Shown here: in pieces, positions 2,379 to 38,704 of the stretch
How positions within the stretch are numbered: position 1 is the stretch's first letter
How the letters are laid out: each line of letters starts with the position of its first letter
Origin: Pseudobutyrivibrio sp. MD2005
Lineage (GTDB): Bacteria > Bacillota > Clostridia > Lachnospirales > Lachnospiraceae
DNA: 64,000 bases
Direction: 5' to 3'
Assembly (NCBI RefSeq): GCF_000621865.1
Contig: NZ_JHXE01000009.1
Span: 62,001 to 126,000 of the forward strand
Notes under the pieces: generated by a model
The model's database searches: none
What the model was told of the DNA's origin: nothing
Seen by the model: only the letters and a program-made list of their open reading frames with translations
Program-made: the position numbers and the translations under genes

Positions 2379-2994
2379 AGCAAGCGCCCCGTATGTAAGT
2401 CCCAGACCGGCCTCGGCCCAGATTAGTCCCGCCCGCCGGCCTTGCATGGGGCACATTGCATGAATATTGCGTTTTTCTAATGAACCTTTGTACAGCCCTT
2501 TTTACATGTGTCTTTTGCAGGCCTGTACAGGTTTGAAAACAGTTTTTGGGAGGCGGACACACATATTAAAAATTAAAATGTACTTCTCAGACTAAGGGAA
2601 CTTGGTTTCATATTACGTTTGCTAAGTAAAATAACAAAGCAGGTTTTGCATATATAATCACCGTGGCACATTCAACATCGTGTTTTAAGTGACCACTTGC
2701 GCTGCCGTCCATGGCACCGCATGCTTATATATTGCAAAACCTGCTTTTATTTTACTAAGCGCACTTCAAAATCAACCAAGTTTTCCCTTAGCCTGAGAAG
2801 TACATGAAAAACTTCAGTGTCCGCCACCCTAAAAACAATTTTTCAAAACGGTTCATTCCGCAACAAGACACATGTGGGCTGTACAAATTGGTTCATAAGA
2901 AAAACAGCAATATTCGCAAAATTGTGCCCCATGCAAGGCCGGCGGGCTGAGTTGGGCCGAGGCCGGAACTAGAGCTATTAGCTGGGCGCGTGCC
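2379..2994. repeat. Long inverted-repeat element LIR-1 (first of two copies)
   Basis: This noncoding block fills the space between two convergent stop codons exactly. It is a near-complete inverted repeat centred near 2687. A 14-nt outer arm at 2407-2420 pairs perfectly with 2953-2966. GTACTTCTCAG (2580-2590) pairs with 2793-2803. An A/T-rich arm AAGCAGGTTTTGCA pairs with its complement around a loop of about 60 nt (about 2662-2722). The loop holds small hairpins of its own, such as AAGTG-AC-CACTT. A second copy lies at 38077-38704. As an RNA it could fold into one extended hairpin of about 560 nt and would serve as a bidirectional terminator. I do not recognise it as a named RNA or IS family. 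No transposase is encoded. Confidence 0.9.
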
Positions 2995-4638
2995 TTACTG
3001 GCTGAGCTTTGAAACGTCTGCCTCCAGGGCGCTGTAGTAGGCTAGTACCTGGCTTAGAAATTCTTCGATTTCTAGGTCGTCGAGGTATCGTATTTGCGAA
3101 TCGGCGGTGCTAACTAGATATGAGGCGTCATAAAATGTGGTGTCGAATTCGCTACTTGCATCTGGATTGAAAAGACTAGTTCCAAGGAAATAGTTCTCTG
3201 AATCAATGTCCAGGTAATCAAGGACTGTTGGTGCAAGGCAAAGTGAGTTGCGACCGTTTACGTCGATGGTGTTAGCTTCGATTCCTTTGTAGTAGATGTA
3301 AAGTGGAATAGTGTCTACATCTGTACAATCACGCTTGTGGTCAGGAAATGCGTTAGAGTAGTCCTGGTCGGCGTAGGTTGTGTGGTCTGTGGTGAAAATT
3401 AGTATGGTGTCATCAGCCATGTCAGAGGCATTGAAGAGTTCTAGAAACTCGCCAAATTGCTGATCCAGATTGTAGAATCTGTTGAGCGCTGCATTCTTTC
3501 CGTTGCCGTAAGTGGCGCCATTTTCTGGAGCATCAAAAGATACGTGGGTGCCGAAGGTATAAATGCTTAAGAAGAATGGCTGCTTGTCCTCAGCTTCGTC
3601 TAATTCCTTGGCGTATGCATAAAGGAAATTGTAAGCTTCATCATCTGTCATACTGAGGTTGTAGCCAGATACGTGACGTGTGTCTGTAACTACATTTTCA
3701 AAACCTAAATTAGCGCAATAGCGGTTGAATTCTTCGTTGTAAGGCTCTACGTTGATGAAATCTGTACGATATCCATTGGCTTTGAAAATATCTTGCATTG
3801 ATATAAGATTGTTGCCAACTTCGTCGTCATCTAACTTGTACCCGCTGTAGAGCTGCCCCTGAACACCTCTAAGTGTAGGGAAGGTGTGATTGTAGTAATT
3901 CTTAAAGCTTAGAGACTGTTTTTCAAAGCTTTGTAGATTTGGCATTATATCTCGTTCATCGGAGATGATATTGTAAGATAAACCTTCTGTGAAAATCACG
4001 ATTACGTTAGGATTTTCTGGAAGATTATCAGGCTTTACAATGGCATCTTCAAGACTATCGCGATAATAAGTCTTGAGGGCAACTTCAGGATTTGCCTGAG
4101 CCTTTTTTACCTGATTATATCTGATTTGGTCTACAGCTAGTGTGGCAAAGCTTTGCACAGGGCTGAAACGCTTGTATTCGAAATGCAGCCCTATTTCAGA
4201 AATCAAAAGCAAAACAAGGATTCCTGCAATGACTTTTTTATTAATCTTTTTGGTAAGGGATTTACCTCTGATAGCAACAATCGCAAGTACCAGTATGGTA
4301 CCTAATGCGTAGGCAACAATTCTTCCGCCTAAATCCTCTAAGAATTTGATATTCTTAAGCATTGTCATAGTTACATAGCTGTTGCCGAAATAAAGCACCA
4401 ACATCTGGGCTATGTAAATGAAAAACAGCAGATTCGCCAAAAGCCATAGGCCTATATGCTTTTCTACCAGTAGATTGTAGATGAAAAATATAAAAACTAA
4501 TTCCACCAAACCAATTACAAGATAGGTGGGAATTTTAGTTGTGGTGTATGTCAAAAGAGTAAGTATGATAGCAAATAAAAACTTCACTCCTGTTAAAATG
4601 CTTTCTCTAAAAGCTTTGTCTTTGAACTTGTTAAGCAA
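2995..4638 (-). CDS. LtaS-like phosphoglycerol transferase / sulfatase-fold membrane enzyme
   Basis: Five hydrophobic segments in residues 18-150 (roughly 18-34, 38-58, 62-83, 107-123, 135-150) are followed by an extracellular sulfatase-fold domain. Visible catalytic elements are E218 in IFTEGLS, the candidate nucleophile T255 in FPTLRG, a histidine in GTHVSF and the metal-binding pair in FTTDHTTY. Family knowledge: LtaS-type enzymes move glycerol-phosphate or phosphoethanolamine onto surface polymers at the outer face of the membrane. The start is TTG with AAGGAG nine bases upstream; the ATG-less start is decided by this site. It follows the acyltransferase gene with no gap, so both are probably cotranscribed and modify the same surface glycan. 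The exact donor group cannot be told from sequence. Confidence 0.85.
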   Translation of the reverse strand: MLNKFKDKAFRESILTGVKFLFAIILTLLTYTTTKIPTYLVIGLVELVFIFFIYNLLVEKHIGLWLLANLLFFIYIAQMLVLYFGNSYVTMTMLKNIKFLEDLGGRIVAYALGTILVLAIVAIRGKSLTKKINKKVIAGILVLLLISEIGLHFEYKRFSPVQSFATLAVDQIRYNQVKKAQANPEVALKTYYRDSLEDAIVKPDNLPENPNVIVIFTEGLSYNIISDERDIMPNLQSFEKQSLSFKNYYNHTFPTLRGVQGQLYSGYKLDDDEVGNNLISMQDIFKANGYRTDFINVEPYNEEFNRYCANLGFENVVTDTRHVSGYNLSMTDDEAYNFLYAYAKELDEAEDKQPFFLSIYTFGTHVSFDAPENGATYGNGKNAALNRFYNLDQQFGEFLELFNASDMADDTILIFTTDHTTYADQDYSNAFPDHKRDCTDVDTIPLYIYYKGIEANTIDVNGRNSLCLAPTVLDYLDIDSENYFLGTSLFNPDASSEFDTTFYDASYLVSTADSQIRYLDDLEIEEFLSQVLAYYSALEADVSKLSQ

Positions 4639-5706
4639 TTATTTATTCTCCTTAGCTGAGAGTTTCATAAGTGGCTGCTCCACATAAGTGTAAACCGCCA
4701 TGGCGATAGCCAAAGTGATGCCGTAAATTGTAATGAAGCTGCTGTAAGCAGATAGCTTGTCAAAATATGAAAGCAGGCAACCATGAATCAAATACATGGA
4801 AAAGCTTGCGTTTCCAATTACTGTGAATAACTTGTTGCCTAAGAATCTGCAGCAGATACTATCTGATGAAAGTAAGCTGATAACAACTAAAACAGCAGAT
4901 GCAACGTATGTAATAAAAATAGCGTAGGTCCAGCCTACATATAAGCCAGTATATTTTGAGTTAATCTGTGACAAAATCTGCTCTGAGCTTAATATTGAAA
5001 GAACAAGGCAGATAAATACAAATACTGAGCCTAGAGCTTTGAGTAGTTTTGTCAGGCTAGCATTTTGAATATGTGTATTTTTGATAGCTTTTAATAGGTA
5101 AGCAAAGGACATACCGATTAAGAAAAACCATATCTTAAATAGCTGAGGCCCACCGTTTGCATAGAGCTGTAATCCTGTGTAAATAGAGTATTTATAAGTG
5201 ATGTATACAGCTAAATTAAGGAAAGCAAATAAAATAAGATTTATGTAAATAGCCTTTTTTACAAAAAGAGCAAGCAGCTTTTTTATTAATCCTAAGAGCA
5301 ATAATAAAAATGGAGCAAAGGCATAGAATACAATTTCCTGCTGTAAAAACCACAGATGATTTTTGCTCTTAATAAAAAACATGTTTAGTAGCAAGCTGTG
5401 TTCGGTTGAGAAATCTCTGAAATCGAAGAAGCGTAGTCCGAATGCAGCAAATAGCATGCACAGCCAGCAGGCTGGAATGATGCGTACCAAACGTTTTTTG
5501 TAGTAGCTTACAAAGCTTTTTATGTTGAAATACTTATATTCGTAATCGTCTGTTGAATATGGCCTACAGACAAAAAAGCCGCTCATGGCAAAGAATATGG
5601 TGTTGCCTAATCCGCCCTGCATTAACAATCCACAGTGGGATGCAATAATGAGGGAGATGGCCCAAAATCTAAGCCCTTGAATGGCATTATTTTTGGTTTT
5701 ATTCAT
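4639..5706 (-). CDS. Acyltransferase 3 family membrane protein
   Basis: A 355-residue polytopic protein of about ten hydrophobic segments with the acyltransferase-3 signature: N-terminal QGLRFWAISLIIASHCG, including the conserved histidine, then GFFVCRPY and an R-rich cytoplasmic stretch (YYKKRLVRIIPACW). The family O-acetylates or otherwise acylates surface sugars and peptidoglycan. It is the first gene of a two-gene minus-strand unit whose second gene is the LtaS-like enzyme. It diverges from another acyltransferase across 164 bp that should hold both promoters. The role in polysaccharide decoration is inferred from neighbours; the acceptor is unknown. Confidence 0.85.
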   Translation of the reverse strand: MNKTKNNAIQGLRFWAISLIIASHCGLLMQGGLGNTIFFAMSGFFVCRPYSTDDYEYKYFNIKSFVSYYKKRLVRIIPACWLCMLFAAFGLRFFDFRDFSTEHSLLLNMFFIKSKNHLWFLQQEIVFYAFAPFLLLLLGLIKKLLALFVKKAIYINLILFAFLNLAVYITYKYSIYTGLQLYANGGPQLFKIWFFLIGMSFAYLLKAIKNTHIQNASLTKLLKALGSVFVFICLVLSILSSEQILSQINSKYTGLYVGWTYAIFITYVASAVLVVISLLSSDSICCRFLGNKLFTVIGNASFSMYLIHGCLLSYFDKLSAYSSFITIYGITLAIAMAVYTYVEQPLMKLSAKENK

Positions 5707-5870
5707 TAAAAGCGTAATCCTTTCTTATGTAAACTTTTGAAGTCACACTTTCAAAGATTATAACATTTATATCTATAATGCGTACAGAAATTTGTATGTC
5801 AAAAGTGGATATGATAAAATAAATCAGTTGATTAATGATTAAAAATCATTTAAGAGTTAGGTAGATTTAA

Positions 5871-6947
5871 ATGAACAGAATTAGAACCCTAGGTGATTCA
5901 TCTACAGGTACTGATAATAATCTTAATCTGGTTAGATTGATTGCAGCCTCAATGGTTATGTATATGCATTCTCTTGCATTGTGTCAGGCTAATCAGGAAG
6001 CGGATTTAATGTATACCCTGACCTTTCATAAGGCTTTGTCGGGGCAGGTAGGTGTTGATATATTTTTCGTTATAAGTGGTTTCTTGATTTACAGAAGCTA
6101 CGAACGTGGCAATAACATAATTAAATATCTCAAGGCAAGGTTCCTTAGAATATGGCCACTTTTGGCTGTGTTTATTTTATCAACTACATATATTTTCGGC
6201 CCTATGTTTACAAGCGTATCCCACAAGGAATACTACGCAGATCCATGGGTTAAGGAATATCTGTTGAATCTTGTTTTTATATCAGGAAGAAACAGATTGC
6301 CAGGTGTTTTTGCATTTCACATTAATCAAAGTTCCAATGGAAGCATATGGACACTGCAGTTTGAAGTTATATGTTACCTGTTAGTGCTTGGTTTTGTTCC
6401 ACTTTGCAAGAAATATAAAAAAGCAATATTTGCCATAATCGCAATCTCATTAGGAATCTTTCTTTTGTTTTCCTATGGAATAAAAGAGGGCTCTTTTATG
6501 GGGCTTTCCAATACGCCATTCATCAATTTCGGAAGGCTTTCCATGGAGTTTGAAATTGGGGCTATGTACTATATCTACAGGGATAAGATAGTGCTATCCT
6601 TTAAATATTTTTTAATAGCTGTAGTGGGAGTGCTTGCGGTTCCATATTTTGCTGATTATGAAATAGCATTTGCGCTATTTGGGGCATATATAGTAATGTA
6701 TATTGGCTTTGGATACTATGGCATTTCAAAGCTTTACAATAAAGTTGGAGATATTTCCTATGGCGTTTATGTAATGTCATTTTTTATCCAACAGCGTTTG
6801 ATTGATGTTATGGGGGCTAGCCCAGACGGCTATCAGGTCCTTCATATGGATCCATATATCAATCTTTTGATGACGGCGATTATAGTCATCCCATTATCAT
6901 TTGCAAGCTGGCATTTATTTGAAAAACAGCTTCTTAAATTAAAATAG
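5871..6947 (+). CDS. Acyltransferase 3 family membrane protein
   Basis: This 358-residue multi-pass protein carries the family pattern NLNLVRLIAASMVMYMHS with the conserved histidine, then GVDIFFVISGFLIYRSYE and the basic LKARFLRIWPL loop. The length is normal for the family. It begins a plus-strand run of surface polysaccharide genes with an 11-bp gap to the following glycosyltransferase. It is only distantly similar to the minus-strand acyltransferase next door, so this is not a recent duplication. It probably O-acetylates a capsule or EPS repeat unit; that is inferred from context. The Shine-Dalgarno site is weak (TTAGGTAG). Confidence 0.85.
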   Translation: MNRIRTLGDSSTGTDNNLNLVRLIAASMVMYMHSLALCQANQEADLMYTLTFHKALSGQVGVDIFFVISGFLIYRSYERGNNIIKYLKARFLRIWPLLAVFILSTTYIFGPMFTSVSHKEYYADPWVKEYLLNLVFISGRNRLPGVFAFHINQSSNGSIWTLQFEVICYLLVLGFVPLCKKYKKAIFAIIAISLGIFLLFSYGIKEGSFMGLSNTPFINFGRLSMEFEIGAMYYIYRDKIVLSFKYFLIAVVGVLAVPYFADYEIAFALFGAYIVMYIGFGYYGISKLYNKVGDISYGVYVMSFFIQQRLIDVMGASPDGYQVLHMDPYINLLMTAIIVIPLSFASWHLFEKQLLKLK

Positions 6948-6958
6948 TAACGAGTATC

Positions 6959-8809
6959 ATGGAAGAAATAAAAGAATATAAACAACCTAAAAATAAAATA
7001 GAAAAAGGTCTTTTGTATCTACAGCATTACGGGATAAAAAAGACTGTTGCCAAAACAATTAGAAAGGCCATGGGCCACGATCAAGAGCATTACAGCTACA
7101 GGAAGTTCCTTAAGGAAAATCCTCTTACAGAGCAGGAGCTTCAAAAGCAGCGTAACACAAAGTTTGATTACAATCCTGTTATCAGTATAGTAATCCCTCT
7201 GTACAACACAAAAGAACAGTTCCTTACAGAACTTATACAGTCTTTCACCGCACAGACATATCCTAATTGGCAATTATGTTTAGGAGACGGAAGCCCTGAA
7301 GCAGGTCTTGAAGATATAATCAAAAATGCCACCGGTGGAGTTTGGGATGATAGAATCATCTACAAAAAGCTTGAAGACAACACTGGTATCGCCGGCAACA
7401 CAAATGCGGCACTTGAGCTTGCCACTGGAGACTATATCGGATTTACGGATCACGATGATTTGATCACACCTGATGCTATGTTTTACATTGCAAAAGCTCT
7501 AAATGAAGACAATAGCATTCAGGCAATATATTCAGACGAAGATAAAATCGACATGGAGTCAAAGGAATATTTCCTTCCACATTTCAAGTCGGATTTCAAT
7601 ATTGATTTGCTGTGCTCACACAACTATATCACCCACCTGTTTGTGGTCAGGGCAGATATAGTAAAGGAAAGCGGAGGAATCCTTTCTGAGTTTGATGGTG
7701 CACAGGATCACGATTTTGATTTTAGAGTTTTGGAAAAGTGCGATAACATTTATCATATTCCAAGAGTCTTATATCACTGGCGTACTCATCCAGATTCTAC
7801 AGCCGATCACCCAGAGGCAAAAATGTATGCCTATGAAAATGGTCGTAGGGCTGTTGAAAATCATTACAAAAGATTGGGCATCCCAGCAAGGGTAGAGCTT
7901 GATACTCATCTTGGCTATTATCGTACAATATACGAATGGCCTGATACACCGCTTTTATCAATAGTCATACCAAATGTAAATCACAAAGATGATTTAAAGG
8001 CCTGTATCGAAAGTATCATTGATAAAAATACATATGGTAACATCGAATTCATTATTGTGGAGAATAATTCCACAGAGGATTCTGTGTTTGAATATTACAC
8101 AAAGCTACAATGTAGCACTGATATCAAAGCGACAATCGTGGACTACACAAGAGAATGTAGCCCTGATGATAAGAGCTTTAACTATTCAGCTCTTGTTAAT
8201 TACGGGGTTAGCAAGGCAAATGGTGAATACATCCTTTTGCTAAATAACGACACTAGAATGATTAATGCCGATGCCATAACAGAGCTTATGGGATTTGCAA
8301 GAAGAAATGACGTAGGTGCTGTAGGCGCCAGATTATATTATGGTAACAATACTGTTCAGCATGCCGGATTGATTTTAGGTTTGGGGGGCGTTGCAAACTC
8401 ACAATTCTTAGGCAGTGGCCGTGAACAGGTTGGATATTTTTATAGAAGTACATGCGTACAAGACTTATCGGCTGTGACGGGAGCCTGCCTCCTTACAAGC
8501 AAGCAGGATTATGAAAGCGTAGGCGGTTTCAATGAAGATTTGGCAGTGGCATTTAACGATGTTGATTATTGCCTAAAACTCAGAGAAAAAGGCAAGCTGT
8601 GTGTATACACACCATTTTCTGAATGGTATCATTTGGAATCTGTTAGCCGTGGTTCGGATTTGGAAAATCCTGATAAGAAGATTAGGATGGAAAAAGAGAC
8701 TAAGATATTCAAGTCTAGATGGCAAAAATACTATGATAAGGGCGATCCTTATTACAATCCTAATCTAGCGTTAGATAAGTTTGATTACTCATTTAAGAGT
8801 CAAAATTAA
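6959..8809 (+). CDS. Tandem-domain family 2 glycosyltransferase
   Basis: At 616 residues this is two GT2 (GT-A fold) domains after a basic N-terminal segment. Domain 1 starts near residue 75 with ISIVIPLYNTKEQF and has its metal-binding motif in FTDHDDL. Domain 2 starts near residue 335 with LSIVIPNVNHKDD, has its motif in LLNNDTRM and a conserved C-terminal D-V-D-Y-C-L-K-L helix region. Such two-domain enzymes build alternating or branched surface polysaccharides (rhamnan and O-antigen type) at the cytoplasmic face. No membrane helix is apparent. It sits between an acyltransferase and a UDP-sugar pyrophosphorylase. The sugar donor is not predictable. A related but divergent tandem protein lies at 11508-12863. 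Confidence 0.9.
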   Translation: MEEIKEYKQPKNKIEKGLLYLQHYGIKKTVAKTIRKAMGHDQEHYSYRKFLKENPLTEQELQKQRNTKFDYNPVISIVIPLYNTKEQFLTELIQSFTAQTYPNWQLCLGDGSPEAGLEDIIKNATGGVWDDRIIYKKLEDNTGIAGNTNAALELATGDYIGFTDHDDLITPDAMFYIAKALNEDNSIQAIYSDEDKIDMESKEYFLPHFKSDFNIDLLCSHNYITHLFVVRADIVKESGGILSEFDGAQDHDFDFRVLEKCDNIYHIPRVLYHWRTHPDSTADHPEAKMYAYENGRRAVENHYKRLGIPARVELDTHLGYYRTIYEWPDTPLLSIVIPNVNHKDDLKACIESIIDKNTYGNIEFIIVENNSTEDSVFEYYTKLQCSTDIKATIVDYTRECSPDDKSFNYSALVNYGVSKANGEYILLLNNDTRMINADAITELMGFARRNDVGAVGARLYYGNNTVQHAGLILGLGGVANSQFLGSGREQVGYFYRSTCVQDLSAVTGACLLTSKQDYESVGGFNEDLAVAFNDVDYCLKLREKGKLCVYTPFSEWYHLESVSRGSDLENPDKKIRMEKETKIFKSRWQKYYDKGDPYYNPNLALDKFDYSFKSQN

Positions 8810-8843
8810 GAATATGTGGATAAGCAAAGGAGATTAAACTATA

Positions 8844-10070
8844 ATGTATACTAAGGAACAAGCTATTAAGCTTTTACAGGACAACAATCAGGAACATGTT
8901 ATGAAGTTCTTCGATGAACTTTCTGATGAAAATAAAAGTGAGTTTTTAACTCAGATTGAAAATATCAACTGGTCAGATTTTAAGCTTATTGGCGATACTG
9001 AAGCTGCTTCAAGAGGCGAGTTTTCAGTGCCACCAGCAGTTGAGATTTCAGAGATTGAAAAACGCCATGATGAGTTTGAAGCTGTAGGTATTGAAGCTCT
9101 TAAAAAGGGCGAAGTTGCAGCAGTGCTTTTGGCAGGTGGAATGGGAACACGTCTCGGATTTGATTTGCCAAAGGGATGCTTCAATGTTGGCGAGACTCAT
9201 GAATTATTTATCTTCCAGTGCCTAATCAACAACCTTATGGACGTTGTTAATCAGGTTGGCTGTTTTGTACCTTTGTACATAATGACAAGCGAGAAGAATG
9301 ATGCTACTACAAGAGCATTCTTCAAAGAGCATAATTATTTTGGATATAATCCAGATTACATTCAGTACTTTGTTCAGGATATGGCTTGTGCTGTTGATTA
9401 TAACGGCAAGCTTTTACTTGAGGAAAAGGGACGTCTTGCTACTTCTCCAAATGGAAATGGTGGCTGGTATGCATCAATGGTAAAGGCTGGTCTTGATAAG
9501 GACTTAAAGGCAAAGGGCGTTAAGTGGATTAATATCTTTGCAGTAGATAATGTTTGCCAGAGAATTGCAGATCCTGTATTTGTTGGTGCTACTATTGCAG
9601 GTGGTTTCCAGGCAGGTTCTAAGGTTGTACGTAAGGTAGATCCACAGGAAAAAATGGGTCTTCTTTGCCTTGAGGATGGCAAGCCTTCTATCGTTGAATA
9701 TTACGAAATGTCAGATGAGATGGCAGAGGCAAAGGCTGAGGATGGAAGCCTTTTATATAAGTATGGCGTAATCCTTAATTACCTTTTCTCTCTTGAGAAG
9801 CTTGATGATATTGTAAATAACAATATGCTTGTGCATGTGGTTGAAAAGAAGATTCCTCATATCGATGAGGATGGAAATCATATTTCTCCAGAATCGCCAA
9901 ACGGATATAAGTTTGAGTTACTTGTACTAGACATGGTACATATGATGGATAGCAACCTTGCGTTTGAGGTTGATAGAGTTAGAGAATTTGCGCCAATCAA
10001 GAACCTTCACGGTGTTGATTCGGTAGATAGTGCTAGAGAACTTTTAAAGAAAAATGGAGTTGTTCTCTAA
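8844..10070 (+). CDS. UDPGP-family UTP-hexose-1-phosphate uridylyltransferase
   Basis: This 408-residue cytoplasmic protein has the eukaryotic-type UDP-sugar pyrophosphorylase signature LLAGGMGTRLG at residues 95-105 followed by DLPKGCFNVG, and a central NGNGGWYASM sugar-binding motif. The family makes UDP-N-acetylglucosamine or UDP-glucose from UTP and the sugar 1-phosphate. The second lysine motif (PSIVEYYEMSDEMAE) resembles UAP1-type enzymes, so UDP-HexNAc is the better guess. A good AAGGAG site precedes the ATG. It supplies activated sugar to the flanking glycosyltransferases and sits 13 bp ahead of the priming transferase. The substrate is not proven. Confidence 0.88.
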   Translation: MYTKEQAIKLLQDNNQEHVMKFFDELSDENKSEFLTQIENINWSDFKLIGDTEAASRGEFSVPPAVEISEIEKRHDEFEAVGIEALKKGEVAAVLLAGGMGTRLGFDLPKGCFNVGETHELFIFQCLINNLMDVVNQVGCFVPLYIMTSEKNDATTRAFFKEHNYFGYNPDYIQYFVQDMACAVDYNGKLLLEEKGRLATSPNGNGGWYASMVKAGLDKDLKAKGVKWINIFAVDNVCQRIADPVFVGATIAGGFQAGSKVVRKVDPQEKMGLLCLEDGKPSIVEYYEMSDEMAEAKAEDGSLLYKYGVILNYLFSLEKLDDIVNNNMLVHVVEKKIPHIDEDGNHISPESPNGYKFELLVLDMVHMMDSNLAFEVDRVREFAPIKNLHGVDSVDSARELLKKNGVVL

Positions 10071-10083
10071 CAGGGGGTAAGCA

Positions 10084-19283: not shown

Positions 19284-19285
19284 TA

Positions 19286-29067: not shown

Positions 29068-29085
29068 AATAAGGGTGAATAACTT

Positions 29086-29970: not shown

Positions 29971-29993
29971 ATGGGATTAATGGGAGAAATGTG

Positions 29994-30938: not shown

Positions 30939-30949
30939 AAAGGTATTTA

Positions 30950-31747: not shown

Positions 31748-31751
31748 TAAA

Positions 31752-31793
31752 AAGCCTGGAGTTTTGCTAATCAAAACTTCAGGCTTATTTTTT
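31752..31793. terminator. Bidirectional terminator between convergent genes
   Basis: AAGCCTG / CAGGCTT plus an inner AGTTTTG / CAAAACT form a stem of about 14 bp with one mismatch. A-rich and T-rich flanks on both sides allow termination from either strand. Confidence 0.9.
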
Positions 31794-34371
31794 AGAAGTA
31801 CAGCACCATTTTAGTTATTCCGATAGTGGAAATTGATGTGGATGGTGTGGTACTTGACGGCACCACATGCTGAGTGTGAGATTCTCCAGAGATTCTTACA
31901 TAGCAGTTGTTTAAATCCTCATCTGTAGTCTGAATTAGAGGGATAGTCACAATACCATTTTTAGAATCGAATGTACTTGGTTTGTTCAATCCACCTTGTC
32001 CAATAATCTTTCCATTGCTTAGAACTTCTATATTTAACTCCCTTAAATTTTCTGATGCATAATAATAGAATTGTACTTTTTGAGTTCCTGCTGGAATTTG
32101 ATTTTGAATAGTGAAATTGATTCGAGAAGTGGACTGAGTGTAGATGGTGGTAGATTTGGAACCGCCCGGCCACACAACACTGCTACTCTTATCATAATCT
32201 GTAGGGCTGGTGCCATTTACATTATTTGTAGATATATTGATTGTTTTTGTCACGCCAGCAGCACCAGCGGTTGAGTTAACAACTCTTGTATAAGTCTTTC
32301 CGTCGATACCTTTTGCTGTATAAGTGATATATTTTCCATCAGCACTTTTCTTAGATGTGGTTTGCGCCACGTATTGCTGTTTCTCGGATACCTTTTTATC
32401 ACAAGTATACATAATGCTAACTTTTGAATAATCCTTTGCCCAAACAACATCAGAATTATTCTTTACAATCCACTTATGTCCATTGATGTCACAATCATTT
32501 ATCTTATCTGCCACAGTTACAATATGCATAGGGCCAGTGCCGCCATACTCATCGCCTCTGGTACCGTGGATTTGGCTACAGTTAGTTACTTTAATCCATC
32601 CATTTCGCAATTCCGATTCAGATAGATTGCTTATATCAAATTCATAGGATTTATATCTATATCCGGTGTATGTAAAGTTGGATTTTTCAGGATCCTTGTA
32701 CCAGGTGGCTGGATTCTCATTTCCTGCATACATGGCTGGATAGCCTTCGCCAAAATCTGTTTGGTATTTGTTGCCCTCGGACACATCCTCAGAACTAACT
32801 CCAGTGTAATCAAGATACTTTCGATTAACGATTGTTACGTTGTTGCTAGATGCTTCCCACTTTGTGGTATTGTCGTAATCCTTTTCGGTATTATTGTTAT
32901 TTGTTCCGTCAGTATACCAGAATGTGATAGTGACTGACTGTGGTGAATTGGAATTGGCCAATACCTTAGACAGGTCGATAACTGCAGTGGAGTGTAGGTT
33001 AATCCATTCCTGACCGCCATCCATATCTTCAAGCTCACCGCTGGCCACATTACCGTTTGCGGCATCAATGGCTTTTAAAATGGAGTTGGAATTGTTGGCA
33101 AGCTGGGTATGCTTGATTTTATGACGATACTGCCAAGAGGATGGAGTATCTCCGTTTGCACCGTAGACAGACAAAAGCTTAGTGTTGCTTTTTATAAAAC
33201 CATCGGCCACAGAGTTTCTGTGAAGCTGTACAGCAATTATGTCGTTGGCGGTAGCAAGTCTTTTACAATTGTCTTTACTGTGGCAGCTGGCAGTGTGAGA
33301 ATAGCAATTTGCGCTAGCACAAAGACCACCACACCAGCCATCAGAAAAAGTGAAAAGACTTACAATATCATCTACATTATTTAAGTTTGCAATATTAATT
33401 GAATTGTGCTTATTGAGCCACGCGCCTGCACCTTTACCGGATGCGACAACATAGTTGAAGAATTCTTTGTTCTTTGAATTGTTGTTTACGCCAGCGGAGC
33501 TTCTTGCGATGAGGTTGTATATAGGCTGATATTTTCCTGCTAAGGATGTACCAGCAGGCACCCAACTTGTCCCGTTAAAAGCATTTGCTCTTGAATTGAT
33601 ATATTCATTTAATAGGACATTTGTGTAGCCCTCAAGCCAAGTTACCTGAGTAGGAGAAAGATAAGTTTCGCTACCGTCACCCTCATAGAATGCTGCCAAC
33701 GTACACAACATCCAATAATCAAATGATTTACCATTGTATGATGCCGATTTTAACGCACCGTCATTTAGGTACTTTCCATCTTTAGTTAATCTGACCATTG
33801 ATTGGGCAAAGCCCTTAAATGAAGCAGGATTTGCCAGCTTGTTATAGATAATCTTTCTATATGTGTCTAAAAGCGATGCTTGAGAATACTGACCTGTTTT
33901 TGATGAAACGGCAGTATATCCCTTTAAGCCTAAGATTTCGCCAAGCATTTCAGGATTGGCCTCTAGGGAATTGCCTAGGAATATATCGAAATCGCCAGTG
34001 TTAGTTGAGAAGTTGATATTCTGCCATGAAACACTGGCACCCTTTGTTGAAATGTAATTTGTGTCAGCTCCTGCATAGTATTCGCTGGCCCAGGAACTGT
34101 ACATTCCTTTGTTGTTATACGAATTAAAATTATTCTCTTCAAATAGAATTCGTTCCCACATTCCTTTAATCAAATCGCTTTTGCAGCTGGAATAAATTGA
34201 AATGTAATAAGGGTAAAATGATCTTGAAGGAATAAAGGATTCGTCCTCTAAAGTGAAGGCAGAGTCTGCAGCATTTGCAGTAATTGTAGTTTGCAAAATA
34301 TAAGAAATTACAATGGCTGAAATGAGGAATACTGAGGCAAATATTCTCAATCTGTTTTTAATCGATTTCAT
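31792..34371 (-). CDS. Large secreted protein of unknown function (859 aa)
   Basis: A signal peptide (about residues 1-35, basic start then a hydrophobic core ending in TANAAD) leads an 859-residue exported protein. I do not recognise any domain. Visible features are an N-terminal mixed region rich in Tyr, Asn and Ser and a compact Cys/His cluster near residue 350 (CGGLCASANCYSHTASCHSK). The C-terminal half is beta-like and rich in Thr, Asn and Ser, with a final Ser/Thr/Pro linker. There is no sortase motif. It is the last gene of a four-gene operon; its start overlaps the end of the preceding acidic protein gene by 14 bp, so the two are coupled. The Cys/His cluster could hold metal or disulfides. 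Confidence 0.8.
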   Translation of the reverse strand: MKSIKNRLRIFASVFLISAIVISYILQTTITANAADSAFTLEDESFIPSRSFYPYYISIYSSCKSDLIKGMWERILFEENNFNSYNNKGMYSSWASEYYAGADTNYISTKGASVSWQNINFSTNTGDFDIFLGNSLEANPEMLGEILGLKGYTAVSSKTGQYSQASLLDTYRKIIYNKLANPASFKGFAQSMVRLTKDGKYLNDGALKSASYNGKSFDYWMLCTLAAFYEGDGSETYLSPTQVTWLEGYTNVLLNEYINSRANAFNGTSWVPAGTSLAGKYQPIYNLIARSSAGVNNNSKNKEFFNYVVASGKGAGAWLNKHNSINIANLNNVDDIVSLFTFSDGWCGGLCASANCYSHTASCHSKDNCKRLATANDIIAVQLHRNSVADGFIKSNTKLLSVYGANGDTPSSWQYRHKIKHTQLANNSNSILKAIDAANGNVASGELEDMDGGQEWINLHSTAVIDLSKVLANSNSPQSVTITFWYTDGTNNNNTEKDYDNTTKWEASSNNVTIVNRKYLDYTGVSSEDVSEGNKYQTDFGEGYPAMYAGNENPATWYKDPEKSNFTYTGYRYKSYEFDISNLSESELRNGWIKVTNCSQIHGTRGDEYGGTGPMHIVTVADKINDCDINGHKWIVKNNSDVVWAKDYSKVSIMYTCDKKVSEKQQYVAQTTSKKSADGKYITYTAKGIDGKTYTRVVNSTAGAAGVTKTINISTNNVNGTSPTDYDKSSSVVWPGGSKSTTIYTQSTSRINFTIQNQIPAGTQKVQFYYYASENLRELNIEVLSNGKIIGQGGLNKPSTFDSKNGIVTIPLIQTTDEDLNNCYVRISGESHTQHVVPSSTTPSTSISTIGITKMVLYF

Positions 34372-35125
34372 TAGAGGTCCTTTCTATTGATTCTTCTGTA
34401 TACGAGGAAGTTTCGCTGTCGAATTCTGAGCTGGATTCTGGAATGCTTGAAGAATCATCTGGCTTGGAATCTTCAGATGTATTATCTTCTTCATTTTTAG
34501 CATCTTCGCTAGCTTCTTTTGATTCTTTAGATTCACCGGTTTCATCAGTTTTATCAGATTCATCAGAAGTATCCTGTGAATCTGCTGACTCGAGGTTCTC
34601 ATCTGTTGCATCTGCTTTTTCTTCAAGTGAATCTAATGCTTCTGGCTCTTTTAATTCTTTTTCTAACTCCGGATTTTCCAAATCTTCTTCATCAGAATCG
34701 GATTCAGTGTATTCGCAGGTAACATCAGTTATGGAACCATCCTTTTGAACATAGTAGGAAATGAATATGTCTGAAGGGCATTTTTCCGGTAGCTCTAATT
34801 CATCAAGAATGGATAGAACTCTATCATGAGTTTCTTCTTCAGAAATATTGTTAAGAAGTTCTTTGGTGGAAGTGTCGGAATCTGATTCAAGTAAACAGCC
34901 GTACTCCATTTGGGTATAGCCGCTTAAGGTACTGTTTTCTAATTCCATTTCCCAGTATACATATTCTTCAATAGCCACCTCAGTAGCATTATCGTAATCA
35001 ATCGTCTCTACGATTTCTGCATCAGTCTGTTCATCAGCTTCCTCGGCTCTAGCAGCGGTGGCTGGTATCATTGAAACGATAAAAGATGATGTTAGTATAA
35101 GTGGTAAAATCTTTTTGAAATTCAT
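34358..35125 (-). CDS. Secreted acidic protein with Asp/Glu/Ser-rich tail
   Basis: This 255-residue protein has a signal peptide (about 1-27, cleavage near ARAEE). A compact region of about 110 residues contains WEMELENSTLSGYTQMEYG and ends near a VTCEYTESDSDEED segment. A highly acidic low-complexity tail of about 110 residues (Asp, Glu, Ser, Lys) fills the rest. I recognise no family. The 14-bp overlap with the 859-residue protein and the 21-bp gap to the membrane-anchored protein place it in one operon. The tail might bind calcium or act as a flexible spacer; this is inference. Confidence 0.75.
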   Translation of the reverse strand: MNFKKILPLILTSSFIVSMIPATAARAEEADEQTDAEIVETIDYDNATEVAIEEYVYWEMELENSTLSGYTQMEYGCLLESDSDTSTKELLNNISEEETHDRVLSILDELELPEKCPSDIFISYYVQKDGSITDVTCEYTESDSDEEDLENPELEKELKEPEALDSLEEKADATDENLESADSQDTSDESDKTDETGESKESKEASEDAKNEEDNTSEDSKPDDSSSIPESSSEFDSETSSYTEESIERTSNEID

Positions 35126-35146
35126 GTTTGTCTCCTTTTGAAAAAA

Positions 35147-36817
35147 TTAGAATGGATAGAATGAGTTGCTAATCCAATAGCCATAAACTCCGTTTTTGTA
35201 GCCAAAATCAAACTCAGCATTTTCACCTGATTTATTTACAGTTGGAGCAGTAGTAGCTTTTGACTTATTCTCAAGAGCCTTAACACGCTGCTCGTAATCA
35301 TCAAAATGTGAAGCGGTGTTATCCTGAAGTGAAGTAATTTCTGAAAGCAATTTCTCACGCTCGTTAGCATTGTTTGTTTCGTTGGAATTGATAATCTCGG
35401 TGAGTTGGTCATAGAGATTCGATAATCCCTGAGATGATGCATCTGCGTTATCGTTGATTACCTTAAGCATTTCTTCACGCTGAGCATCTGTAAGAGATTT
35501 ATTTTTATTTATGATATCTGTCAGATTGCTGTTAACTGTTTCTAAGTCGGCTGAGCTTTTTAAAGCTAATTCATCAAGGCCTTTTGCAAGTGCATCTATG
35601 TTGGCTGTGATAGATGTTTTCTCCCATTTCGAGCCGTCAAAAGCACCTGATGTAGAATCTGTGGCACGATACAATTCGCCGTCTTTGATTACATAATCTC
35701 CAGCCTGATATGAAGCTGACTCATCATACTCTTTTGCACCGACTGTATTTATGAACGTCTGATAGTTGAAATCGATAAGCCCTGTCAAAGTAAGTGGCTC
35801 CCAATGCTTTGCGTTGCTATCAGGCTCATCTCCAGTAGAGGCTTCAATACATTTATAAATAATGTTTTTGTAGATAACATATTCTCCAGGATTGTATGTC
35901 TTTCCTGGCTGCCAATCTGAAGCGCCAGTCACTGATAAAAATGTATTGTAATTATTATTAATTACAGTGGTAATGGAAACTTCCTGCCAATTTGTTGTAT
36001 CTACATTTGGGGTTGTAGCTGAATTATTGCCGGTGAGATTCTTGTAGAATGTATTATTGTAAAGAACAAAATCATTGATTTGATATTGCTTATCTGCTGA
36101 CCACTCTGTGACACCACCATATATTTTAGTGATGAAAGAATTATAATTATTATTTATATCTGCCTGTGTATCGCTAATCATTTCGTTTACTTTGTTGAAA
36201 TGATCAAGCTCTGTGTTAACCAAATCTGAGTGAAGCTTCTTTAATGAATCAAGCTCTTCCTTTGTGTAATTATTATTAGCATCAATTTCACTCTGGAGCA
36301 TTTGAGTTATTACATCTAAAGTAAGTGCGTTTTGCTTTACGTATTCAGCAAAAGATGAGTTGATATCCTGGATAGATTTGTTTGTTGCAGTTTTATATTC
36401 ATCCAGATTCATTCCATCAACATACTCAGCAATAACCTCTAACAGTTCGGCTTTTTGATCATCTGTAAATGCTGAAGAGGAATCAAGATATTCAGCAATA
36501 TGATTTAGAATCTTTCTTTTGGCAGCCTCATGAGATATGTCGCCATCTGTATATTCATCAACAGCATCCAAATATGAATCTGTGATATATTCTTCGATTT
36601 CATTTAAAGTGAGCTCGGAAGCAGAAACTGAATTCAAGCTTCTTATGTTTTTTATTCCTAGAATCATAAAATGTCCTAGTATAAGCAAAAGCACTAAAGC
36701 AAGCGTAGAAATAAATACCGCAACTCCATTTAACGTGCCGTCAGGATACCTATAGGTTTGGATAATTTCTTGTAAAAGGGTAGACTCCTCCCTTGGATTA
36801 GTTCTTTTCTTCTTCAT
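35147..36817 (-). CDS. Membrane-anchored coiled-coil protein with three CBM5/12-like repeats
   Basis: I chose ATG 36817 (TAAGGAG eight bases upstream) over an in-frame TTG at 36838 inside the preceding gene. Of 556 residues, 1-30 are cytoplasmic, 31-54 form one membrane helix, and 65-220 are helical. Three repeats of about 60 residues occupy about 222-281, 286-343 and 348-402. Each repeats the pattern W/Y-x5-Y-x3-D/E-Y/F-V-x7-Y/LY followed by a Trp near its end. These resemble carbohydrate-binding modules of family 5/12 and tail-fibre modules. The segment 405-520 is predicted coiled coil and the protein ends YGYWISNSFYPF. It is likely a surface adhesin or scaffold; function unknown. Confidence 0.75.
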   Translation of the reverse strand: MKKKRTNPREESTLLQEIIQTYRYPDGTLNGVAVFISTLALVLLLILGHFMILGIKNIRSLNSVSASELTLNEIEEYITDSYLDAVDEYTDGDISHEAAKRKILNHIAEYLDSSSAFTDDQKAELLEVIAEYVDGMNLDEYKTATNKSIQDINSSFAEYVKQNALTLDVITQMLQSEIDANNNYTKEELDSLKKLHSDLVNTELDHFNKVNEMISDTQADINNNYNSFITKIYGGVTEWSADKQYQINDFVLYNNTFYKNLTGNNSATTPNVDTTNWQEVSITTVINNNYNTFLSVTGASDWQPGKTYNPGEYVIYKNIIYKCIEASTGDEPDSNAKHWEPLTLTGLIDFNYQTFINTVGAKEYDESASYQAGDYVIKDGELYRATDSTSGAFDGSKWEKTSITANIDALAKGLDELALKSSADLETVNSNLTDIINKNKSLTDAQREEMLKVINDNADASSQGLSNLYDQLTEIINSNETNNANEREKLLSEITSLQDNTASHFDDYEQRVKALENKSKATTAPTVNKSGENAEFDFGYKNGVYGYWISNSFYPF

Positions 36818-36830
36818 ATAAAAGTTCTCC

Positions 36831-37541
36831 TTATTCAAAATACTGTTTAATTAAATTGTTGATTGTTTGGTAATTCAGAGGTGATGCTTTTGATTCGAAT
36901 GAAGCAATAAGATTATCTCCAAGAATAATTCCGTTGCTGGAATATACTTTTATTTTATTAGAAAAATCATCACAGTAGTCACTGTTATCCATCATTCCAA
37001 AATGCTCCCAGTAATAAATTTTATTAGTTAAGGGATGCATGATTGTGAAATCTGGCGCATAGTCTTTGCCGTTAAGCTGCAGTATATTCTCATAGCGAAA
37101 GGGAATATGATTATCTGTTAAAGCAATAGCAATCATTGATTCTGATTTAGACCTAACTAATAGGCCGTTAATAGTGGGATGTGTTAATTTTTCTGGATGG
37201 CTATTGTTCCTGGGATAAGGGGAATTCATCCAAATGGATGCCTCTGAATTGCTTAATGAAAAATGATTTGATAATAGTTCTAGATAGGCTTGATCATTTA
37301 GTAAGTCATTTAATCGGTCTTGATATACTTGTATTCTGTTATTGTTGTTTTCAAGATTCTTTAAAGTACCATTGAGAACCTTCAGCTTTAAATATAAGTA
37401 TTTCTTTAGGGCTAGCTGTTGCGCCAGCTTAAAATCTTTTTTCTTTAAATAATGTCGTTGATTATTTACGTAATGAAACCACTTACTTGTATTTCCTTGA
37501 TGCCCAATCGAGATATATCCTTCTGGTAGTGAACGATACAT
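36831..37541 (-). CDS. Conserved protein with PD-(D/E)XK-like core
   Basis: This is 236 residues from ATG 37541. The N-terminal half is basic and helical. The C-terminal half holds VRSKSESMIAIAL, IPFRYENILQL, the PDFTIMHP segment and YYWEHFGMMD, which read together as a restriction-endonuclease-like D...E-x-H core. I have seen this arrangement in many uncharacterised Clostridia proteins; no activity is known to me. Coding character continues 22 codons upstream to 37607 (reading VENILNEDKC... into KKLNKM) without an ATG, GTG or TTG, while GAAGGGAG sits at 37611-37618. The true start may be non-standard (ATA at 37596-37598) or mutated. It is the first gene of the four-gene operon. Confidence 0.7.
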   Translation of the reverse strand: MYRSLPEGYISIGHQGNTSKWFHYVNNQRHYLKKKDFKLAQQLALKKYLYLKLKVLNGTLKNLENNNNRIQVYQDRLNDLLNDQAYLELLSNHFSLSNSEASIWMNSPYPRNNSHPEKLTHPTINGLLVRSKSESMIAIALTDNHIPFRYENILQLNGKDYAPDFTIMHPLTNKIYYWEHFGMMDNSDYCDDFSNKIKVYSSNGIILGDNLIASFESKASPLNYQTINNLIKQYFE

Positions 37542-37700
37542 CTTATTAAGTTTTTTAATTTGTTTTTTTAAAATTACACACTTGTCTTCATTTAATATGT
37601 TTTCTACTCACTCCCTTCAGTGCAATATTTACACTTTTAATAATAAAAATGGAATCTTAGGCGATTAGCCTGAAAGAATTAAAAAATGATACGAGCGATA

Positions 37701-37728
37701 ATATAACATAGGATTTGGAAAATTACAA
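37701..37728 (-). promoter_or_regulatory. Candidate promoter for the four-gene operon
   Basis: On the minus strand, TTGTAA (37723-37728) and TTATAT (37701-37706) are 16 bases apart. This would yield a leader of roughly 80-150 nt before the first gene. It is weakly consensus and unproven. Confidence 0.4.
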
Positions 37729-37811
37729 GTAGAAATTTAATTTATTTTTAAATGTGTTTTATAACGGTTTGCTCGGCGGTAGGAACTCTATTACCTTGGG
37801 CTTGATTTTGA

Positions 37812-38064
37812 AGTATCACTTTTGACCTTATTTTTAAAGTGATACTGGAAAATGAGTCTATATGCAAGAGAAATCATTTTTTGAGTATCACTATTGAGGG
37901 ATTTTAGAAAAGTGATACTTGAAACAGAAGAGAATTGCCATCATAGAGGCACTAATGAGTATCACTTTTAAAATAGGATAAAAAGTGATACTCGAAAATT
38001 GAAATAGTATGCTGATTTATTGAAAATGCAGTATCACTTTTGAATATGCGTTAAAAGTGATACT
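37812..38064. repeat. Four hairpins in a 72-74 nt periodic array
   Basis: Four palindromic units at 37812-37846, 37884-37919, 37958-37992 and 38030-38064 each begin AGTATCACT and end AGTGATACT. Stems run 9-13 bp. The central 11-18 bases differ in every unit. The start-to-start distances are 72, 74 and 72; the three intervals of 37-38 nt also differ, though all have GAAA near the left and TGC near the middle. Because the loops vary and no cas gene is present, this is not a CRISPR array. It lies between a divergent-promoter region and LIR-2. Confidence 0.85.
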
Positions 38065-38076
38065 ACGAATAACCAA

Positions 38077-38704
38077 CCAGCTCTTTACCATTCACAGTTT
38101 ATTTTGGAGGGGCGCCCTCACCCCAGCTGTGGCCTCCAGTATACACATGGCGTGATTTTGCGAATATTGTTGCTTTTCTTATGGGCCAAATTTATGCATT
38201 GCACATGTGTCTTGTTGCGGAATGAACCATTTTGAAAAATGTTTTTTATGTGGCGGACACTGAAGTTTTTTATGTACTTCTCAGGCTGAGGGGACTTGGT
38301 TTCATATTCCGCTTGCTAAGTAACATGACAAAGCAGGTTTTGCATATATAATCACCGTGGCACATTCAACATCGTGTTTTAAGTGACCACTTGCGCTGCC
38401 GTCCATGGCAGCGCATGCTTATATATTGCAAAACCTGCTTTTATGTTACTAAGCTCACTCCAAAATCAACCAAGTTCCCCTCAGTCTGAGAAGTACAAAT
38501 TACACTATGCCGTGTGTCCGCCAACCAAAAACCTTTTTCAAAATTGTACAGGCCTGCAAAAGACACATGTAAATAAAGATGCATAAATGGCCCATTAGAA
38601 AAACGCAATATTCTTGCAATGCGCCATGTGTATACTGGAGGCCACAGCTGGGGTGAGGGCGTCATAAATGTATGGCAACTGTGAATGGTAACGCCAGCTC
38701 TTTA
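38077..38704. repeat. Long inverted-repeat element LIR-2 with flanking direct repeats
   Basis: This second copy of LIR-1 is centred at 38387. A perfect 36-bp outer arm (38115-38150 with 38624-38659) is unrelated in sequence to the outer arms of LIR-1. Beyond it ACCATTCACAGTT recurs inverted (38087-38099 with 38678-38690). An 11-bp direct repeat CCAGCTCTTTA flanks the whole (38077-38087; 38694-38704), as a target duplication would. The inner 182 bp (38294-38475) matches LIR-1 in the same orientation, but the surrounding arms match LIR-1 in the opposite orientation. No protein-coding frame is convincing. The right end is 12 bp from the valS -35 box. Confidence 0.9.

What the first reader, a model, noticed from the sequence alone, without database searches (positions are those of the whole stretch)
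2379..38704. Two copies of a ~600-nt long inverted-repeat element with covarying stems
LIR-1 (2379-2994) and LIR-2 (38077-38704) are each inverted repeats over nearly their full length around a conserved loop of about 60 nt. Differences between copies are compensated on the opposite arm: CTAAGGG/CCCTTAG becomes CTGAGGGG/CCCCTCAG; TAAAATA/TATTTTA becomes TAACATG/CATGTTA (approximate ends); ATGAACC/GGTTCAT becomes ATGGGCC/GGCCCAT. The outer stems are unrelated in sequence but each pairs perfectly (14 and 36 bp). This is what a selected RNA or DNA structure, or arm-to-arm conversion, would give. I do not recognise a named family.
Basis: seen in the sequence. Interest (0 to 1): 0.85.

Follow-up and report, generated by a model that had tools for sequence, protein, structure and literature searches.

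The report
Dispersed long DNA hairpins in Pseudobutyrivibrio
The two long hairpin sequences belong to a family of about fifty dispersed, transposon-like hairpins in this bacterium, built around a known but unexplained RNA motif, and their two arms seem to be kept matching in good part by copying one arm from the other, which matters because such matching is usually read as proof of a working RNA.

Summary
Both loci are ~600-bp inverted repeats whose tips match the Rfam family TwoAYGGAY (RF01731). The genome, a Pseudobutyrivibrio, has 49 matches, and 27 of 29 genus genomes carry it. LIR-2 looks like a clean insertion: 609 bp, ends TTACCATTCACAGTT, flanked by CCAGCTCT twice. Covariation is very strong (94.9% of cells paired, 72.5% shuffled).

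Structure alone does not explain it. At some loci shared by sister species the interior is flipped relative to the flanks. In three of eleven close pairs most changes in the stems are two-sided, clustered in outer blocks. Arms end at gene stop codons and in L177 and L065 enter both convergent genes. G·U is 1.9% of inner pairs; wobble bias to one strand appears only in the 100 nt beside the tip. Against this, one-sided changes outnumber compensated ones over the eleven pairs (166 to 82).

Best reading: a MITE-like mobile hairpin with a probably real small RNA at its tip, its arms maintained largely by arm-to-arm copying (template switching). The mobilising enzyme was not found, no function is shown, and some flips may be assembly errors. 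This is a new variant of a known kind.

The parts
2373..3000 (.). LIR-1: inverted repeat, from just inside the end of one gene to just inside the end of the convergent gene; no terminal TTACCATTCA motif recognised
   Evidence: locus L050
2610..2771 (-). LIR-1 tip: TwoAYGGAY RNA core
   Evidence: RF01731, 67.4 bits, gathering 43
2431..2455 (.). LIR-1 perfect outer stem, left arm (25 bp, pairs with 2923-2947)
   Evidence: no match elsewhere among the 157 copies held at E 1e-6
2923..2947 (.). LIR-1 perfect outer stem, right arm
2376..2378 (+). stop codon of the TPR-protein gene 39-2378, in the base of the stem
2995..2997 (-). stop codon of the convergent sulfatase-family gene 2995-4638, at the mirror position in the stem
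38085..38693 (.). LIR-2: 609-bp insertion
   Evidence: locus L045
38077..38084 (.). 8-bp target duplication CCAGCTCT, left
   Evidence: sequence
38694..38701 (.). 8-bp target duplication CCAGCTCT, right
   Evidence: sequence
38085..38099 (+). terminal inverted repeat TTACCATTCACAGTT
38677..38691 (-). terminal inverted repeat, other end
38113..38152 (.). LIR-2 perfect outer stem, left arm (40 bp, pairs with 38622-38661)
   Evidence: similar stems in L039, L044, L046, L048 and others of this genome
38622..38661 (.). LIR-2 perfect outer stem, right arm
38304..38465 (-). LIR-2 tip: TwoAYGGAY RNA core
   Evidence: RF01731, 70.9 bits, gathering 43 (alignment)

Best explanation
LIR-1 and LIR-2 are two copies of a dispersed, non-coding, MITE-like hairpin element of the genus Pseudobutyrivibrio. 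Shown: the tip matches the TwoAYGGAY model; there are 49 such tips in the genome; part of the copies, LIR-2 included, have shared terminal repeats and 8-bp target duplications, and for one sister copy close relatives have the uninterrupted site. Inferred: the long arms are kept complementary in good part by copying of one arm from the other (template switching in hairpins or cruciforms during replication). The same process also flips inner segments, rewrites outer stem blocks on both sides, and extends the paired arms outward to, and sometimes into, the ends of neighbouring genes. Selection acts chiefly on the tip and on conserved asymmetric internal loops, probably as an RNA read from the TwoAYGGAY strand. 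For the host the element is most likely tolerated because it sits at gene 3' ends.
For: Family and copies: 49 matches; 27 of 29 genus genomes. Mobility: of 157 copies held, 37 have a TTACYATTCA-like end on both sides; in 9 of those 37 the flanks agree in 7 or 8 of 8 bases at a fixed offset (null mean 0.33, maximum 4 in 2000 shuffles; L151 and L158 are one insertion seen twice). The site of copy L058 is uninterrupted in G025 (94% identity), G004 (77%) and G021 (74%, query 199-1300); the site of L046 has no element in G026. Arm copying: of 25 pairs of copies whose two flanks match (16 loci), 13 pairs (9 loci) have the tip inverted relative to the flanks; in L174/L183 and L063/L064 flanks are 86-96% and tip and arm zones to 165 nt are 97-100% identical. 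L072/L162: flanks 96-98% and tip 99% identical, the outermost zone 41% different, 16 compensated pairs against 12 one-sided; L079/L172 15 against 13 and L080/L082 21 against 19. In L188 the left middle arm matches that of L176 on the opposite strand (99%) while the tips match directly. In L177 a 19-bp arm match lies inside both convergent open frames in different reading frames. Open-frame 3' ends lie at the stem edge (median 1 nt, 75 of 175 within 15 nt) against 4 of 121 for 5' ends; convergent stops are symmetric to within 5 nt in 15 of 41 (shuffle mean 3.1, maximum 10). G-U is 91 of 4768 standard pairs in the inner 63 pairs. Papers on this process elsewhere: PMC8794818 (abstract and opening), PMC8604942 (passages).
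Against: In eleven close pairs of copies (the close ones of the 25), one-sided changes in the stems total 166 (84 other mismatches, 48 G-U, 34 A-C) against 82 compensated and 25 two-sided mismatched (counts, summed); compensated changes exceed one-sided ones in only 3 of the 11. Stepwise compensation is therefore not excluded. Asymmetric internal loops stay unpaired at conserved places across diverged copies, which blanket arm copying would erase. Beside the tip, isolated mismatches are G-U rather than A-C (52 against 19 distinct contexts, p = 1e-4), as for a selected RNA. No transposase with these ends was found, by a look at the listed end pairs and at 20 fetched regions. LIR-1 has no recognisable ends. 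Of the 13 inverted pairs, 8 are only 48-60% alike as elements and may be separate histories. At least four copies have runs of N in or beside the hairpin (L058, L135, L221, L035) and many genomes are drafts, so some flips may be assembly errors, although perfect arms in the inverted pairs are at most 43 nt.
Confidence: 0.55

Rival explanations
1. A long structured RNA (tip plus arms) is the selected thing, for example a CsrA-binding small RNA as proposed for TwoAYGGAY in PMC4333381, and the arms covary through ordinary stepwise compensation.
For: Covariation is overwhelming: 57 of 63 pairs with two-sided changes, score 0.592 against 0.184 shuffled, 0 of 500. Conserved internal loops. Wobble bias beside the tip. 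One-sided changes outnumber compensated ones in close pairs, 166 to 82. GGA in the apical loop and the CsrA proposal (PMC4333381, passages). Raised from 0.2 to 0.25 because of the one-sided counts.
Against: G-U only 1.9% of inner pairs. No wobble bias in the outer arms: distinct contexts G-U 32 and 18 against A-C 34 and 27, and 2 against 3 in the outer 40 nt of the tip. Blocks of compensated change beside nearly unchanged sequence. Arm-segment flips. Paired arms run into coding ends. No orientation preference relative to the abutting open frame (21 same, 27 opposite).
Confidence: 0.25
2. The hairpin is a two-way gene-end structure (terminator or mRNA 3'-end protector) selected on both strands, so mainly Watson-Crick pairs are kept.
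For: Open-frame 3' ends abut the stem (median 1 nt) and starts do not (median 97 nt); 41 of 148 contexts are convergent and 14 divergent. Lack of wobble bias in the outer arms fits selection on both strands.
Against: No U-tract just past the hairpin: runs of 5 or more T in 17 of 175 against 12 of 175 in a control stretch. LIR-2 lies upstream of a T-box-like leader before valS, not at an identified gene end. Does not explain flips.
Confidence: 0.12
3. A plain MITE: the arms match because every copy was pasted from a few masters, and covariation between subfamilies is inherited, not maintained.
For: Shared ends and target duplications; LIR-2-type copies share outer stems; tips are alike within a genome (L143 tip 98-99% like L141 and L150 in G022).
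Against: Outer stems change on both arms at one locus between close species, and 6 of 8 outer stems queried have no match outside their own locus among the 157 copies held (these include 151 of the 252 copies counted in the genus).
Confidence: 0.06
4. Assembly artefact of a few repeated sequences.
For: Runs of N in at least four copies.
Against: Copies in 27 of 29 genomes including nearly closed ones (G028 with 3 contigs, G003 with 2), with different flanks and intact Rfam cores.
Confidence: 0.02

Closest known systems
TwoAYGGAY RNA, Rfam RF01731 (PMC2864571: table row and other passages; PMC4333381, PMC7657543, PMC11701678, PMC11661157: passages)
   Same: The tips match the covariance model above the gathering score (and the rows listed in 17 and 18). 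Strong covariation of the core is known; PMC7657543 reports extra covarying pairs that lengthen an annotated helix.
   Different: Rfam models 168 positions. In this genus the model sits on arms of roughly 200-285 nt each side (IR extent 568-729 nt between quartiles), in up to 49 dispersed copies, with transposon-like ends in part of them. In LIR-1 and LIR-2 the second loop does not keep AYGGAY. Rfam types it as cis-regulatory, the discoverers' table as not; here the tip has no orientation preference to the neighbouring open frame.
MITEs (miniature inverted-repeat transposable elements)
   Same: Short, non-coding, terminal repeats, target duplications, many copies, hairpin.
   Different: Mover not found; arms paired over nearly the full length, with locus-specific, fast-changing stems and flipping interiors.
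Quasipalindrome correction and spacer inversion by template switching (a process; PMC8604942 passages, PMC8794818 abstract and opening)
   Same: Arm homogenisation, inversion of the interior, multi-base compensated changes.
   Different: Described, in the parts I saw, for short repeats in yeast genes and for RNA genes; here for a 600-bp dispersed bacterial element, in nested segments.
REP/REPIN palindromic repeats (PMC3116915, PMC3733652: search listing and start of abstract only)
   Same: Dispersed palindromes in bacteria, also targets of IS insertion (PMC1525189: search listing and start of abstract only).
   Different: REPs are 20-40 bp by the abstract; these are about 600 bp with an Rfam core.

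Membership tests
TwoAYGGAY RNA (RF01731) | covariance-model score above gathering threshold (43 bits) | tested here: met
   67.4 and 70.9 bits; all 49 genome matches over the cut-off
TwoAYGGAY RNA (RF01731) | both terminal hairpin loops carry AYGGAY | tested here: not met
   first loop AUGGAC; second loop in LIR-2 aligns as CAC-GAUG, and LIR-1 has the same letters. Some other copies, such as L157, keep GGA in both. Rfam membership rests on the model score.
TwoAYGGAY RNA (RF01731) | transcribed RNA | not testable with these tools
   no expression data; indirect support from wobble bias beside the tip
MITE | terminal inverted repeats | tested here: met
   LIR-2 and 36 further copies of 157; not recognised in LIR-1
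MITE | target-site duplication | tested here: met
   8 bp, 9 of 37 with at least 7/8 identity against null mean 0.33; LIR-2 CCAGCTCT
MITE | multicopy, non-coding, site without the element in relatives | tested here: met
   49 copies; uninterrupted site of L058 in G025, G004 and G021, duplication there diverged at 3 of 8; L046 site without element in G026, junction not alignable
MITE | autonomous element with the same ends | tested here: inconclusive
   The IS4-family element of L218/L237 carries the motif only in its flanks; its own ends are CAATGTCATT. No other candidate seen among the exact-pattern hits, of which I fetched 20 regions.
CsrA-binding small RNA | GGA in a hairpin loop | tested here: met
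   AUGGAC apical loop; GGA columns invariant in 80 copies
CsrA-binding small RNA | binds CsrA | not testable with these tools
   presence of csrA in this genome was not searched either
Intrinsic transcription terminator | stem followed by a U-tract | tested here: not met
   T-runs of 5 or more just past the hairpin 17 of 175, control 12 of 175

The most novel reading that the evidence does not exclude
A self-extending palindrome: a mobile hairpin that, after landing, keeps rewriting its own stems by DNA template switching, growing outward until it meets, and sometimes overwrites, the ends of the neighbouring genes, so that each locus acquires a unique perfect stem. Covariation of the kind used to certify structured RNAs would then arise largely from mutation, and known families such as TwoAYGGAY would be the selected tips of such elements.
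Probability: 0.3. Interest if true: 0.8.

Novelty: new variant of a known kind. Interest (0 to 1): 0.6.

Why it matters
It gives an unexplained Rfam family (TwoAYGGAY) a context: in this genus it is the tip of a long, dispersed, transposon-like hairpin. It also provides a natural data set with some 250 loci in close species where the two causes of paired change, selection on structure and arm-to-arm copying, can be told apart. That bears directly on how covariation is read as evidence for functional RNA.

Tried and rejected
IS4-family insertion sequence as the mover: L218 (G028) carries GTTACTATTCACAG-like motifs at both ends and a 451-aa IS4-family transposase frame, and I first took it for the autonomous partner. 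Comparison with its relatives shows that the IS itself ends at CAATGTCATT and lies inside hairpins (terminator-like ones, a terminal-repeat palindrome, the TwoAYGGAY apical loop in L255), so I take it for a passenger.

IS110 element in L217 as the mover: it lies inside the tip of a 750-bp copy. Rejected.

First wobble test, on the 32 of 49 own copies in which a fixed seed was found (all mismatches, G-T 173, A-C 214), mixed conserved internal loops with stems. A second (inner zone 58 against 19, outer 68 against 73) held 28 loci whose strand I had not normalised. Both are superseded, which uses the oriented set and gives the same picture.

RNAalifold-based G-U counts (154 against 78 on 48 copies) were set aside because that fold favours G-U on the folded strand.

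Intrinsic-terminator reading: no U-tract enrichment. Phage and plasmid origin: no match to LIR-2 in either collection. Named genome-contig scan with an 18-mer: of 42 stretches only L097, L104 and L117 align over most of the core, all titled Pseudobutyrivibrio; the others match over 20-27 nt or not at all and look like chance.

Second empty-site query (L046): in G026 the two flanks are adjacent without an element, but about 75 nt at the junction do not align, so it shows absence, not the duplication; in the other genomes the two flanks are apart or only one was found.

Literature: searches for TwoAYGGAY, RF01731, Pseudobutyrivibrio with inverted repeat (none), MITE/IS4/hairpin combinations, template switching, Butyrivibrio repeats and a general one. 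In the listings and passages seen, no paper describes this 600-bp element; subscription papers are mostly not in that library.
Full report
WHAT IS THERE. Both loci are real inverted repeats at the coordinates given. LIR-1 runs from 2373 to 3000 and LIR-2 is a 609-bp insertion at 38085-38693 flanked by CCAGCTCT on both sides. Folded alone, LIR-1 and LIR-2 score z = -33 and -24. Their tips match Rfam RF01731, TwoAYGGAY, on the minus strand, at 67.4 and 70.9 bits with a gathering score of 43.

ORGANISM AND COPIES. The genome has 49 RF01731 matches, all over the cut-off. At least two further copies, L058 and L135, have assembly gaps in the interior. In the genus 27 of 29 genomes have matches, 252 in all when the counts are added up. 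Of the other genomes sampled, 2 of 8 in the same family and 0 of 24 in other families of the order have it. In an even sample of the phylum 51 of 398 genomes have a match and 34 one over the cut-off; only 6 candidates per genome were scored there, so copy numbers are lower bounds. I worked with 157 copies: 49 of 49 own, 102 of the 203 others in the genus, and 6 from two other genera of the family; the 102 were taken mostly from the top of the listing, so they lean to high model scores. Of the 157, 150 were distinct with enough flank.

IT MOVES. An end motif TTACYATTCA (one mismatch allowed) occurs on both sides in 37 of 157 copies, LIR-2 included. In 9 of these 37 the 8 bases outside the motif agree in 7 or 8 of 8 positions, against a mean of 0.33 and a maximum of 4 in 2000 shuffles; two of the nine are the same insertion in two species. 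For the copy L058, G025 has the uninterrupted site (94% identity over 1300 nt), and so do G004 (77%) and, over query 199-1300, G021 (74%). Compared with G025 the insertion added the element plus 8 bp, though the two copies of that 8-mer now differ at 3 places. The site of L046 has no element in G026, where the junction itself does not align. LIR-1 has no recognisable ends, so for LIR-1 mobility is inferred from family membership. A second, 192-194-bp non-coding repeat in the genus carries the same ends. The enzyme is unknown: the IS4-family element that first looked like the partner appears to be a passenger that sits in hairpins.

WHERE IT SITS. In 148 copies with open frames of at least 300 nt on both sides, contexts were 93 tandem, 41 convergent and 14 divergent. 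Open-frame 3' ends facing the element lie at the stem edge (median 1 nt, 75 of 175 within 15 nt, 40 of 175 more than 15 nt inside it), while 5' ends lie at a median of 97 nt (4 of 121 within 15 nt). In convergent pairs the two stop codons are symmetric about the tip to within 5 nt in 15 of 41, against a shuffle mean of 3.1 and maximum of 10. In LIR-1 both paired arms begin at a TAA; its core-to-stop distances are 223 and 231 nt, so it is near-symmetric but not among the 15. LIR-2 does not fit: the 153-aa frame beside it lies over a T-box-like leader of valS (67.2 bits, below the family's gathering score of 93), so its '3-prime end' is spurious. The open frames were called mechanically, so other such errors are possible. 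There is no U-tract past the hairpin and no preference for the tip strand relative to the abutting frame (21 same, 27 opposite).

COVARIATION. On 80 copies drawn at random from the distinct genus copies (22 own, 58 others) the 63 pairs of the consensus structure, which cover the tip and the inner arms, are 94.9% paired (shuffled 72.5%, s.d. 0.4). 57 pairs have two-sided changes (shuffled 45.0), and the covariation score is 0.592 (0.184); 0 of 500 shuffles reach any of the five measures, and slid versions score 0.066-0.118. The structure was derived from the same alignment, less one isolated pair that I removed, which inflates the comparison with the slid versions. G-U makes up 91 of 4768 standard pairs, or 1.9%; A-C mismatches number 56. 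In the longer arms the longest perfect run beyond the inner zone has a median of 23 within a copy and 4 when the arms come from two copies of one genome (one maximum of 64 in such cross pairs).

WHY STRUCTURE ALONE IS NOT ENOUGH. First, flips: 25 pairs of copies, at 16 separate loci, have both flanks matching; in 13 pairs, at 9 loci, the tip is inverted relative to the flanks. Eight of these 13 pairs are only 48-60% alike as elements and could be separate histories; five are 79-88% alike. The clean cases are L174/L183 and L063/L064, where the tip and the arm zones up to 165 nt differ by 0-3%. Nested flips also occur: in L188 against L176 the middle arms match on the opposite strand while the tips match directly. 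LIR-1 against LIR-2 shows the same swap of the middle arms.

Second, block replacement: L072 and L162 differ by 1-2% in the tip and arms to 120 nt, 7% at 120-165 nt, 2-4% in the flanks, but by 41% in the outermost zone, with 16 compensated pairs against 12 one-sided changes in the whole stem. The unpaired internal loop next to that stem changed too, without pairing. L079/L172 and L080/L082 behave alike (15 against 13 and 21 against 19). Of 8 outer stems queried by their left arm at E 1e-6, 6 (L072, L162, L080, L082, L079, LIR-1) have no match outside their own locus among the 157 copies; L172 and LIR-2 do. So these six stems were not imported from a sampled copy, though about half of the other genus copies were not sampled.

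Third, encroachment: in L177 the arms share a 19-bp stretch inside the ends of both convergent open frames, read in different frames, and a second 19-bp stretch that holds both stop codons. In L065 both frames end in the same two codons and stop codon, inside the stem. Whether these frames are real genes was not tested by homology. Selection on RNA would hardly rewrite protein ends; copying from one arm to the other would.

WHAT SPEAKS FOR STEPWISE SELECTION. In the eleven close pairs the one-sided changes sum to 166 (84 other mismatches, 48 G-U, 34 A-C) against 82 compensated changes and 25 two-sided mismatches, and compensated changes exceed one-sided ones in only 3 of the 11. Part of the one-sided count probably comes from misaligned flipped arms (L176/L188, L188/L203). 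Isolated mismatches in the 100 nt beside the tip are G-U on the TwoAYGGAY strand far more often than A-C (52 against 19 distinct contexts, p = 1e-4). In the outer 40 nt of the tip itself they are too few to tell (2 against 3), and further out they are balanced (32 against 34; 18 against 27). Conserved internal loops stay unpaired. So the tip neighbourhood looks like a strand-specific RNA and the outer arms look strand-neutral. The contexts are partly shared by descent, so the p value is approximate.

MECHANISM. The best single reading is arm-to-arm copying by template switching in extruded hairpins, on top of selection for the tip. It predicts homogenised arms, inverted interiors and multi-base compensated changes, all seen here and all described for other repeats in PMC8794818 (abstract and opening read) and PMC8604942 (passages read). 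What is inferred and not shown: the polymerase events, activity today, transcription, any CsrA binding, and any benefit to the host. On checking the calls I lowered this reading from 0.6 to 0.55, the novel case from 0.35 to 0.3 and the interest from 0.62 to 0.6, and raised the RNA rival from 0.2 to 0.25, because the one-sided counts had been left out.

CLOSEST KNOWN AND NOVELTY. By model score the tip belongs to TwoAYGGAY, although the second AYGGAY loop is not kept in these two copies. The whole element works like a MITE and meets the tests for ends, duplications and copies, but the mover is missing. I found no description of the long element in the searches listed under Tried and rejected. 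I call it a new variant of a known kind.

Noticed in passing
window 37908-38064: A cluster of spaced palindromes built on AAAAGTGATACT lies directly beside LIR-2; similar arrays built on AAAGGTATAACC occur in L132 and L136, there next to a TTACCATTCRCAGT end motif.
   Followed up: no
L219, L220, L222, L223, L225, L226, L229: A second non-coding repeat of 192-194 bp with the same GTTACTATTCACAG ends, found also in G001, which has no TwoAYGGAY match; its stems also differ between copies while staying paired, by eye only.
   Followed up: partly
L218, L237, L239, L241, L255: IS4-family elements with CAATGTCATT ends sit inside hairpins: terminator-like ones, a terminal-repeat palindrome, and the apical loop of a TwoAYGGAY tip (L255), with 9-10-bp duplications in some, by eye.
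   Followed up: partly
L217 (G013): An IS110-family transposase gene lies inside the tip of a 750-bp copy.
   Followed up: partly
L177 (G009): The ends of two convergent open frames share inverted matches in different reading frames, as if one end had been overwritten from the other side.
   Followed up: partly
window 38755-38989: T-box-like leader (67.2 bits, below the gathering score of 93) upstream of the valyl-tRNA synthetase gene at 39247, about 60 bases from LIR-2.
   Followed up: no
L058, L135, L221, L035: Runs of N fall in or beside the hairpin, and L036 lies at a contig end, as expected if long hairpins hinder sequencing or assembly.
   Followed up: no
L266, L268, L271, L273: In distant genomes of the phylum TwoAYGGAY tips also sit on further paired arms (about 25-85 nt, above shuffles), without the long arms of this genus.
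   Followed up: partly
L071/L078, L143/L178: At shared loci the tips differ (25-45%) while arms at 120-165 nt hardly do (2-3%); the tips of L071 and L143 are 95-99% like other copies of their own genome, which suggests conversion between copies.
   Followed up: partly
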